Positions 36,232-56,932 of a stretch of 64,000 nt of DNA are shown in pieces. The position numbers and the translations under genes are program-made. The notes under the pieces were generated by a model. It saw only the letters and a program-made list of their open reading frames with translations. It ran no database searches and was not told the DNA's origin. The stretch lies in the NCBI RefSeq assembly GCF_017916325.1, contig NC_090166.1, positions 293,001-357,000 on the forward strand, read 5' to 3'. Each line of letters starts with the position of its first letter. Within the stretch, counting starts at the first letter, position 1. This DNA comes from Leishmania martiniquensis. Taxonomy: Eukaryota; Euglenozoa; Kinetoplastea; Trypanosomatida; Trypanosomatidae.

Positions 36232-37005
36232 AAGTTCCATCCAGTGTAGTGGTAGCTGAGCCGCTCGGCGGGAGAGCGTATTTGCGCTTGCGAGTGGCGG
36301 CTCACGCGTGCCTGGACACTCAGACGCACATTGCGAGCGAGGACAAGCGGTATCAGCGCAGACTGCGTGGGCGACCACGGGCAGCCGGAGGCGTACAGAT
36401 GACGGTGCTGGTCGCCGCCAAGCGCGTGAATGTTCTGGGCACTCGCGTGAGAGCTGGCACCCGCCGCACTGATACCATCGCGGTCGGGACTCGATGGCCT
36501 CGGCACGTTCGCCATCCCCAGCCGGCTCAGGTACTCGTTCGGGTACTCCTTCGCGAGGTCCCACACGAGTGAAGCAACCTCATCGACATGCTCCAGGGCG
36601 TTATGGAAAATTCGCTGGTGCGAACGCAAGTGCATCCGCGAGGCGATGGCCCGCACGATCAGGCCAATGTAGTTGACAAGAAAGGCGAGGCAGTAGTAGC
36701 GGGTCTTCGCCTCCAGCAGCCCAAGGGTGAAGAGCACCGACGCCGTGCGATCCATCATGCGCCACCGCTGCCTCCTGTGACTCGTGCTGCGCACGTCAGA
36801 ATCCGAGTCGTCTTGCGGCTCCTCCGCAACGTCAGAGCCGAGGCTCAGGTGGCGCCTCTTGTCGTAGTCGATGAAGCCGCCACCGTCGCTGAAATGGGCC
36901 TCCTTCCACAGCGTCAGGCAGTGCAGCAGCAGCTGCGTGTGGCTGATGGTCAAGATGCAGTATCGCCCGGCGAGCCCGGTCACCTTGTCCACATGCGCTG
37001 TGGTG
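36232..37005 (-). pseudogene. Internal fragment of the MGN-family gene (no 5' or 3' end)
   Basis: The 774 bases match 55581-56354 of the intact array gene, corresponding to about residues 194-451, with no indel and no stop, but both ends are missing. Similarity starts abruptly at GTGGTG (37005) and stops abruptly at AAGTTCC (36232). Its first variable block (36570-36681) is the type found in the copy at 48068-49971, whereas the end near 36232 (SYHYTGW) is the type of the copy at 55025-56932. The reading frame continues to a stop at 36189 in unrelated sequence. It cannot encode a complete family member; it could be debris or a donor for conversion. Confidence 0.88.
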
Positions 37006-55024: not shown

Positions 55025-56932
55025 TCAGTTTTTCAGATGTTTACGCAGAATGGAGGCGATGATGTGCCACTCGCTCGAGTCAGAGCCATATACTCCCGTT
55101 ACAATCGCCCTCTCGAGCAAGTAGATGTCCTTCCACATCGCCTCAGACGCCATCTTTGCCAAGACGGAGGAGAGGAAGAGTGAGGGTAAAATAAGTGCAC
55201 ACGCCTCCTCAAGGCAGAGCGCGACAAGCGTGCGCTCATCGCTGAGGTCGAGGTCTGTGTTGATCTGGCGCCGCTTCTTGATGAGCTTCTCTTCGCACTG
55301 CTTAATCCGCTCCTCCTGCTTCCGGGCCGCAGCACTGTCCTCCGATGCACGGGAGCTGAGGAAACGACTCCGCGTCGCGGCATCGCCTTCCTCCGGAAAT
55401 CTTACAGATACACTGCCCCGGTGCTCATCCGCCTCTACCGTTCGCGATGCGATGTAAAACTCCTCGTGCTCCGCCATGATGGCATAGTGTGCCCACGTGC
55501 TCCTCCCAGGTACGAACCCGGGAAGCGACCTTCGAAGCATGTGCAGGCTGCACCCAGGCACAATCATTAAGCCGGTGTCGAAGTTCCATCCAGTGTAGTG
55601 GTAGCTGAGCCGCTCGGCGGGAGAGCGTATTTGCGCTTGCGAGTGGCGGCTCACGCGTGCCTGGACACTCAGACGCACATTGCGAGCGAGGACAAGCGGT
55701 ATCAGCGCAGACTGCGTGGGCGACCACGGGCAGCCGGAGGCGTACAGATGACGGTGCTGGTCGCCGCCAAGCGCGTGAATGTTCTGGGCACTCGCGTGAG
55801 AGCTGGCACCCGCCGCACTGATACCATCGCGGTCGGGACTCGATGGCCTCGGCACGTTCGCCATCACCAGCCGGCTCAGGTACTCGTTCGGGTACTCCTT
55901 CGCGAGGTCCCACACGAGCACGCTCGCCATCTCCAGGTGCTCCACAATGTTCGCGTGCACCCGATTAATCTTCCTCTGCTCCGTCAGCCCAGCGTAGCAC
56001 CGCATCATCAGCGCGGCGTAGCTGATGAGGAAGGCGAGGCAGTAGTAGCGGGTCTTCGCCTCCAGCAGCCCAAGGGTGAAGAGCACCGACGCCGTGCGAT
56101 CCATCATGCGCCACCGCTGCCTCCTGTGACTCGTGCTGCGCACGTCAGAATCCGAGTCGTCTTGCGGCTCCTCCGCAACGTCAGAGCCGAGGCTCAGGTG
56201 GCGCCTCTTGTCGTAGTCGATGAAGCCGCCACCGTCGCTGAAATGGGCCTCCTTCCACAGCGTCAGGCAGTGCAGCAGCAGCTGCGTGTGGCTGATGGTC
56301 AAGATGCAGTATCGCCCGGCGAGCCCGGTCACCTTGTCCACATGCGCTGTGGTGGCGAGTTGCTTCAGGTACGTGTGCGCAATGTCAGCAAGCAGTCGGT
56401 AGTAGCTGATCACGTGAATCAGGTCCCCGTCAAGAGGCAGGTGGATGTCAACTACCTTGGCACCGAGCGCGGACTGTGCACCGTTTGTCCGTGCGTCCGC
56501 CTGCTCCCCTGGGCCACCACCATCGCCGCCGCCGCCGCCTGGCAGCAGGTCTTCCTCATACTCGCACCCGCCAGCCGCACCCTCCGCGGGGTCAGCTGCG
56601 CCGCCCACACTGCTGCAAAAGACGCTCCTCCGCTCCGCCTGGTCGGACGGATCCAGCGGCCCACCGAAGGCCGCGTCGGCGCCCGCCTGCCTCCCCGCAC
56701 CCTCCTTCGGCGGCGGCGCAGCGTCGGCCTCGGGGCCAGCGCCGCACCCCCTCCGCAGCGCCGCGTTTGTGAGCGTGTCCCAGAAACGCCGCCCGGGGTG
56801 CCGCGTCAGAGCCTGCACAAAGTACACCTCCGACACCGTGAAGCGGCCCTCTTGCGCCGCCTTCACGCCGCGGTAGAACACTTCCGGGTGCCCCTTGCCC
56901 TCCTTGGGCACCGACGACTGTCTATTCCCCAT
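55025..56932 (-). CDS. MGN-family protein, intact array copy (635 aa), function unknown
   Basis: Starts at the ATG at 56932; a longer open frame to 57469 is upstream GC-rich sequence. MGNRQS at the N-terminus fits the N-myristoylation consensus (Gly2, Ser6), so membrane attachment is likely. Residues 19-60 (FYRGVKAA...FVQALTRHPGRRFW) resemble a TPR-like helical hairpin. Residues about 63-145 are a Gly/Ala/Pro/acidic low-complexity linker. Then come a conserved helical part (DIHLPLDG, LLADIAHTYL, GRYCILTISHTQ, LHCLTLWKE), variable block 1 (55919-56030), a constant part (AKEYPNEYLSRL, ALIPLVLARNV) and variable block 2 (55398-55607). A charged helix (RKQEERIKQCEEKLIKKRR) precedes the variable C-terminus. 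No signal peptide or membrane span. It is the only array copy with the five-base G run (56747-56751) that keeps the frame. I recognise no known family. Confidence 0.85.
   Translation of the reverse strand: MGNRQSSVPKEGKGHPEVFYRGVKAAQEGRFTVSEVYFVQALTRHPGRRFWDTLTNAALRRGCGAGPEADAAPPPKEGAGRQAGADAAFGGPLDPSDQAERRSVFCSSVGGAADPAEGAAGGCEYEEDLLPGGGGGDGGGPGEQADARTNGAQSALGAKVVDIHLPLDGDLIHVISYYRLLADIAHTYLKQLATTAHVDKVTGLAGRYCILTISHTQLLLHCLTLWKEAHFSDGGGFIDYDKRRHLSLGSDVAEEPQDDSDSDVRSTSHRRQRWRMMDRTASVLFTLGLLEAKTRYYCLAFLISYAALMMRCYAGLTEQRKINRVHANIVEHLEMASVLVWDLAKEYPNEYLSRLVMANVPRPSSPDRDGISAAGASSHASAQNIHALGGDQHRHLYASGCPWSPTQSALIPLVLARNVRLSVQARVSRHSQAQIRSPAERLSYHYTGWNFDTGLMIVPGCSLHMLRRSLPGFVPGRSTWAHYAIMAEHEEFYIASRTVEADEHRGSVSVRFPEEGDAATRSRFLSSRASEDSAAARKQEERIKQCEEKLIKKRRQINTDLDLSDERTLVALCLEEACALILPSLFLSSVLAKMASEAMWKDIYLLERAIVTGVYGSDSSEWHIIASILRKHLKN

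What the first reader, a model, noticed from the sequence alone, without database searches (positions are those of the whole stretch)
36232..56932. Mosaic gene family: constant backbone with sharply bounded, reassorted variable blocks
Copies at 36232, 40732, 48068 and 55025 are identical or almost so over hundreds of bases, then switch abruptly to strongly different sequence and back. Block 1 is exactly 112 nt in all four (36570-36681, 41626-41737, 48959-49070, 55919-56030) and occurs in two versions: 36232 with 48068, and 40732 with 55025. Block 2 (about 207-210 nt) and the C-terminal block group differently. 55025 shares the start of its C-terminal block with 48068 and the end with 40732. 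Such reassortment in frame points to repeated segmental gene conversion generating protein diversity, as in antigen or recognition gene families.
Basis: partly seen in the sequence, partly recalled or inferred. Interest (0 to 1): 0.88.

Follow-up and report, generated by a model that had tools for sequence, protein, structure and literature searches.

The report
Leishmania gene array with swapped modules
A cluster of nearly identical parasite genes differs almost only in three short protein segments, and several versions of those segments resemble versions in other Leishmania species more than the neighbouring copies, as if selection keeps a few old alternative surfaces on one fixed frame.

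Summary
The window lies on contig C31 of an unnamed Leishmania-like genome and holds a tandem array of the 'sodium stibogluconate resistance protein' family: copies B, C, D, a fragment A and a distant paralog E. B, C and D have no synonymous difference in three backbone segments; B and C share 4.2 kb of upstream spacer with one substitution. Three coding blocks are 29-48% identical in protein between copies (B/D higher in blocks 1 and 2), with synonymous divergence near saturation, and copies group differently from block to block. New here: block versions look old. In block 1 the B/D version is 61-66% identical to five Leishmania species but 29% to the A/C version of its own array, while the backbone puts the own copies in one clade. 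Near-identical proteins of L. braziliensis, and of L. infantum against L. donovani, differ mostly in the same three ranges. So exchange homogenised everything except three modules. Block versions were found nowhere else in the assembly, and dN/dS is below 1: no sign of antigenic variation from an archive. The protein is putatively N-myristoylated and helical, perhaps TPR-like. What the modules do is unproven. Precedents exist, so this is a new variant of a known kind.

The parts
55025..56932 (-). Copy D, open frame of 635 codons (P0002), family 'sodium stibogluconate resistance protein'
48068..49971 (-). Copy C; open from about 49789 to the stop, frame interrupted at one place in the N-terminal part
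40732..42637 (-). Copy B; frame interrupted at two places in the N-terminal part
36216..37005 (-). Copy A, fragment: part of the backbone, block 1 (C version) and the start of block 2 (like D)
61944..63839 (-). Distant paralog E (P0025, 631 aa), 37-40% identical overall; not part of the homogenised set
55919..56030 (-). Block 1 of D (aa 301-338); same version in B 41626-41737; no other place in the assembly found
48959..49070 (-). Block 1 of C, second version; identical in A 36570-36681; no other place in the assembly found
55399..55607 (-). Block 2 of D (aa 442-512); B 41106-41314 is 20% different, C 48442-48647 is 44-46% different
55026..55200 (-). Block 3 of D (aa 578-635); B 40733-40907, C 48069-48243; three versions with shared patches
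41303..46890 (.). Unit 1 (gene part plus upstream spacer), 98.8% identical to 48636-54227; in the spacer 42638-46844 one substitution and 7 gapped columns in 4212
44441..45592 (-). Decayed relic of the same family in the spacer (pieces at about 30-48% identity, several frames); second copy 51775-52930

Best explanation
This is a tandem array of the Leishmania chromosome-31 'sodium stibogluconate resistance protein' family. Gene conversion and/or unequal crossing-over keeps backbone and spacers of the copies identical (identity shown, process inferred). Three coding modules are exempt: each exists in two or three divergent versions that are recombined between copies (shown), and several of these versions are closer to versions in other Leishmania species than to the neighbouring copies (shown at protein level with moderate statistical support). 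The protein is probably a lipid-anchored helical adaptor: putative N-myristoylation is reported for the L. donovani protein, and a TPR-like fold is suggested by weak evidence. Modules 1 and 3 would form helical hairpins that choose the binding partner, so the array keeps several specificities on one scaffold (inferred). Selection for keeping different partners is the most likely reason that the modules escape homogenisation (inferred).
For: Sharp blocks and contradictory groupings. No synonymous difference in three backbone segments among B, C and D, against pS 0.53-0.67 in blocks (0.30 for B/D block 2, 0 for B/D block 1). Upstream spacer of B and C: 1 substitution in 4212 columns. Backbone tree: B, C, D one clade, 100/100. 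D block 1 matches L. orientalis alone at 16 sites against 2 that match only C (P 0.0013); four other rows give 14-15 against 1. C block 2 joins Ghana LV757 with 98/99 support. Holding the own copies together over the three blocks joined: AU P 0.028. Other species, window's own block limits: 40 of 54, 22 of 28, 39 of 51, 56 of 66, 28 of 39 and 16 of 17 differences between L. braziliensis proteins, and 24 of 25 between L. infantum and L. donovani, fall in 167 of 402-628 columns (P 6e-5 or lower; one further pair 4 of 6, P 0.046). L. braziliensis P0006 and P0018 (both named strain M2904) differ in block 1 (34%) but not at the start of block 2, while P0012 and P0018 show the opposite. Both versions are predicted to form the same hairpins. 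PMC4372256 (one passage seen) counts the protein among putative N-myristoylated proteins enriched in promastigotes.
Against: Single-block tests of 'own copies form one clade' do not reach 0.05 (block 1 P 0.10, block 2 P 0.067, block 3 P 0.060; blocks 2+3 P 0.059), and some rows have long branches. Several site tests fail: B against Ghana in block 3 16 to 7 (P 0.093), C against Ghana in block 2 14 to 5 (P 0.064), D against L. donovani or L. major in block 3 (P 0.12-0.40). The A/C version of block 1 is only 42-43% identical to its nearest relative, and C block 3 is as close to B as to Ghana (48%). dN/dS is below 1, so diversifying selection is not shown. Between species only proteins could be compared. 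Only D is an open full-length gene in this assembly. The TPR-like reading rests on sub-threshold matches and models of mean pLDDT 61-65.
Confidence: 0.72

Rival explanations
1. Neutral islands: ancient paralogs were overwritten by conversion except where sequences were already too different for homologous exchange. The heterology itself blocks conversion, so the islands persist without selection.
For: dN/dS below 1 in all block comparisons; the blocks are so different that exchange across them would be inefficient (general knowledge).
Against: The same three places stay diverse in L. braziliensis, the L. donovani complex and Mundinia species while the rest is homogenised, and block versions have been recombined with each other, so exchange near and inside blocks does happen.
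Confidence: 0.2
2. Donor-driven diversification: blocks are pasted into recent duplicates from donors (pseudogenes, other loci, or other strains through mating), as in antigen families.
For: Fragment A carries the C version of block 1 without any difference and could serve as a local donor; each spacer holds a decayed relic.
Against: All eight block versions hit only the array itself in this assembly; the relics are too distant to be the source; block 1 evolves slowly within its lineage. Donors in other strains are not excluded.
Confidence: 0.15
3. Assembly artefact: a collapsed repeat graph was walked arbitrarily, so real block sequences were joined in false combinations, and polishing made the backbone look identical.
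For: Between the B and C units the upstream spacer differs by 7 gapped columns but only 1 substitution, which is more typical of residual consensus errors than of evolution (general knowledge). Mundinia assemblies of 2021 used Flye plus short-read polishing (PMC8210701, first of two parts of the text seen), though it is not known that this window comes from one of them.
Against: Polishing cannot make the block sequences themselves; L. braziliensis and L. donovani-complex proteins, from other assemblies, vary at the same places and in other combinations. One of those, P0018, sits on a contig of only 2987 bases with an odd N-terminus, so it is weaker evidence.
Confidence: 0.1

Closest known systems
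Leishmania 'sodium stibogluconate resistance protein' (SbGRP) family on chromosome 31
   Same: 12 of the 25 proteins listed bear this name from a source; contig C31, near amino-acid transporter genes as in L. braziliensis (one search lists LbrM.31.1030 and LbrM.31.1110); MG-S start
   Different: The modular block structure is not described in what I could search: no paper of the held library has 'Leishmania', 'stibogluconate resistance protein' and 'gene conversion' together; most subscription journals are not in it
Leishmania promastigote surface antigen (PSA) genes, chr12 subfamily (PMC2584048, passages seen)
   Same: Tandem array, ends homogenised within a species by presumed conversion, mosaic genes
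   Different: PSA is a surface LRR protein whose variable part is the repeat domain; here no LRR or surface family was found, and three fixed blocks vary
Chimaeric tandem arrays of Trypanosoma brucei, e.g. PGK and hexose transporters (PMC1855330, passages seen)
   Same: Partial gene conversion between tandem copies; 21 of 47 arrays hold chimaeric copies according to the paper
   Different: There, in the named examples, variation separates functional isoforms; here several versions per block are recombined and shared between species
MHC-like trans-species polymorphism together with concerted evolution (general knowledge; PMC3434948 seen only in a search listing)
   Same: Homogenised frame with old versions of a few segments shared across species
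   Different: Unrelated protein, no known recognition role, versions sit in tandem copies of one genome

Membership tests
Sodium stibogluconate resistance protein family | Full-length sequence homology to named members | tested here: met
   72% to L. orientalis P0003 and 60-62% to L. major, L. braziliensis, L. infantum, L. donovani and L. mexicana members at 100% coverage
Sodium stibogluconate resistance protein family | N-terminal Met-Gly with Ser at position 6 (myristoylation signal, motif recalled) | tested here: met
   M1, G2 and S6 nearly invariant in the 23-row alignment; L. donovani protein among putative N-myristoylated proteins
Sodium stibogluconate resistance protein family | Change of antimony susceptibility | not testable with these tools
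   A 1998 paper on amplified genes in L. tarentolae that may be the founding one was not held
Concertedly evolving tandem array | Copies of one species closer to each other than to orthologs | tested here: met
   Backbone clade of B, C, D 100/100
Donor-archive antigenic variation (VSG-like) | Silent donors outside the expressed copies carrying block versions | tested here: inconclusive
   All eight block versions hit only the array, but fragment A inside the array could be a donor, and weak matches can be missed
Donor-archive antigenic variation (VSG-like) | Surface protein with signal peptide or membrane anchor | tested here: inconclusive
   No Pfam surface family; N-terminus read by eye only; no localisation data; one paper says 'surface' in passing
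TPR superfamily | TPR profile or fold match | tested here: inconclusive

The most novel reading that the evidence does not exclude
The array is a built-in set of alternative recognition modules inside the parasite cell: a myristoylated TPR-like adaptor whose hairpin modules are kept by balancing selection across the whole genus, as in self/non-self or pathogen-recognition loci, perhaps against viruses of Leishmania or for partner choice during mating.
Probability: 0.13. Interest if true: 0.88.

Novelty: new variant of a known kind. Interest (0 to 1): 0.6.

Why it matters
Surveys of drug resistance and adaptation count mutations or copies of this gene (for example PMC8833617 and PMC6222132, passages seen). 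If copies differ by whole old modules, short-read variant calls and copy-number readings at this locus can mislead, and module typing would be needed. More broadly, a locus where everything except three modules is homogenised points straight at the residues that matter for a protein of unknown function, and makes the question 'what do these modules bind' testable.

Tried and rejected
Rfam scan (gathering thresholds) and tRNA scan of the window: no match. Search of the PDB by sequence profile: 5 matches at E 0.16-0.27, not meaningful. Foldseek against the PDB: 12 matches with E up to 10, none at 0.001 or better. The VIA-align list holds many different helical folds, so no fold is claimed. Positive selection by dN/dS was considered and is not supported. 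Two further protein searches gave almost the same set: 23 proteins with the alignment, 25 with the open part of copy C; each scored only the roughly 8000 candidates sharing most words. Library searches on the family, on gene conversion in Leishmania and on trans-species polymorphism showed no description of these blocks in the listings and passages seen; the balancing-selection paper PMC8717319 has no occurrence of 'stibogluconate'. The reviews opened gave no passage on the family.

Rows left out before counts: searches use 20 of the 27 proteins P0002-P0028 (seven distant Novymonas or unnamed rows left out) plus A, B and C; one search also drops L. sp. Namibia, E, two Novymonas rows and L. tarentolae (and A, and one L. 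braziliensis row in the backbone, where too short); the trees also drop the other two Novymonas rows, A and that L. braziliensis row. In one search I had widened block 1 to 291-342 after seeing the L. braziliensis pairs (51 of 54, 25 of 28, 50 of 51, 64 of 66, 39 of 39, 16 of 17, 24 of 25, 4 of 6); one search repeats the count with the window's own limits, and those numbers are used above. Pairs with P0018 were counted from position 230 on, because its N-terminus is odd. In one search the rows of the B/D lineage were chosen because they look alike in that block; L. tarentolae (47%) and Ghana (22%) are the rows that do not fit it.

Full report
What is there. The window is a stretch of contig C31 of an unnamed assembly of 32.3 Mb in 41 contigs. 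The genes I could identify lie on the minus strand; there are 0 tRNA and 0 Rfam matches. The open frame of copy D (635 aa) matches 25 proteins at E 0.01 or better: 14 from Leishmania, 8 from Novymonas, 1 unnamed, and 2 that are the window's own; 12 of the 25 bear the name sodium stibogluconate resistance protein from a source. The nearest is L. orientalis at 72%, so the source is probably a Leishmania of the Mundinia type; the species was not identified. Searches of the own genome with D and E find family members only at this locus: copies A to D, the distant paralog E at 61944-63839 and weak relic matches (10 and 7 places; lower bounds).

Check of the observation. Among B, C and D, 263 of 1903 gap-free coding columns vary, and all but two of these lie in three blocks; the longest stretch without a variable site is 903 columns against at most 104 in 10,000 random placements. 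Block 1 has two versions, A=C and B=D. In block 2, B and D differ at 20% of positions, and C differs from both at 44-46%. In block 3, C and D agree up to column 1786, after which all three differ, and B and D are similar again in a 57-base patch near the end. These groupings contradict each other, so the blocks have been recombined.

Backbone against blocks. In three backbone segments (189, 103 and 65 codons) there is no synonymous difference between any two of B, C and D, and at most one nonsynonymous one per pair and segment. In the blocks the proportion of synonymous sites that differ is 0.53-0.67, apart from B/D, which is 0 in block 1 and 0.30 in block 2; dN/dS is about 0.3-0.7. The upstream spacer behaves like the backbone: 4212 aligned columns between the B and C units hold one substitution and 7 gapped columns in 5 runs. 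The units do differ at their far ends and behind the genes.

Age of the blocks. The main new result is that several block versions look older than the copies. In the backbone, B, C and D are 99-100% identical to each other and D is 69-82% identical to other Leishmania species, and B, C and D form one clade with 100/100 support. In block 1, D is 66% identical to L. orientalis and L. braziliensis, 63% to L. major and L. donovani and 61% to L. mexicana, but 29% to C in its own array; L. tarentolae (47%) and Ghana (22%) do not fit this lineage. Site by site, D matches L. orientalis alone at 16 sites and C alone at 2 (P 0.0013); four other rows give 14 or 15 against 1. In block 2, C groups with Leishmania sp. 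Ghana with 98/99 support. In block 3, B is nearest to Ghana (64%) and D to L. orientalis (66%), ahead of the own copies (47-48%), whereas C is as close to B as to Ghana (48%). Holding the own copies together costs 1.3, 15.1 and 12.2 log units in blocks 1, 2 and 3, with AU P of 0.10, 0.067 and 0.060; for blocks 2+3 P is 0.059 and for all three joined 0.028. So each block alone is suggestive and the sum is significant but not overwhelming. Of the 18 block site tests, 11 are below 0.05; the others are C against Ghana versus D in block 2 (P 0.064), B against Ghana versus C (P 0.093) and D against L. donovani or L. major (P 0.12-0.40) in block 3, and these are not corrected for number.

Replication in other species. 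L. orientalis and Ghana are 96% identical in the backbone but 30, 54 and 59% in blocks 1, 2 and 3. With the window's own block limits, six pairs of L. braziliensis proteins place 40 of 54, 22 of 28, 39 of 51, 56 of 66, 28 of 39 and 16 of 17 differences, and L. infantum against L. donovani 24 of 25, in 167 of the 402-628 columns compared; a pair with only 6 differences has 4 inside (P 0.046). In L. braziliensis the variable stretch around block 1 is a little longer (292-342), so the place is shared but the edges are not exactly the same. P0006 and P0018, both named strain M2904, have different block 1 versions but the same start of block 2, whereas P0018 and P0012 (strain not given) share block 1 and differ at the start of block 2. 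P0018 sits on a contig of 2987 bases. These records come from assemblies other than the window's, which speaks against a purely local artefact. The Novymonas pairs that I compared are divergent along their length, so the homogenised state is seen here only in Leishmania.

Donors. All eight distinct block versions were searched against the whole assembly; every match lies in the array (block 1: 2 and 2 places; block 2: 1, 2 and 2; block 3: 2, 1 and 3). There is no visible archive outside it. Each spacer holds a decayed relic of the family, too distant to be the source. Fragment A could act as a local donor.

Mechanism. Shown: homogenised backbone and spacers, three sharply bounded blocks, contradictory groupings. 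Supported: several block versions older than the species split, shared places across the genus. Inferred: gene conversion or unequal crossing-over as the homogenising process, selection to keep different modules, and a role of the modules in choosing binding partners. Neutral persistence of islands that are too divergent for exchange is the main rival. Precedents are the PSA genes of Leishmania (PMC2584048, passages) and chimaeric tandem arrays in T. brucei (PMC1855330, passages). No paper in the held library has the three terms Leishmania, stibogluconate resistance protein and gene conversion; most subscription journals are missing from it.

Noticed in passing
window 19867-21466 and 27327-28925: Two amino-acid transporter genes (Pfam Aa_trans) 99.9% identical over 1600 bases, a recent or homogenised pair.
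   Followed up: no
window 15884-16152; 40034-40262; 47328-47598; 54689-54950: A roughly 270-base element behind each of the three array genes is repeated 24-39 kb away at 94-99% identity, with three weaker matches further along C31.
   Followed up: partly
window 44441-45592 and 51775-52930: Decayed relic of the same gene family in both spacers, in short pieces and several frames.
   Followed up: partly
window 54960-55025: The stretch behind the stop of copy D differs from that of B and C and lacks about 400 bases present there.
   Followed up: no
window 4065-5012 and 6788-7804, minus strand: Two lipase-like open frames with GHSxG motifs (read by eye, motif recalled).
   Followed up: no
window 13310-15208, minus strand: A 632-aa open frame with a Ras-family GTPase domain interrupted by long inserts (Pfam Ras, E 9.5e-23).
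   Followed up: no
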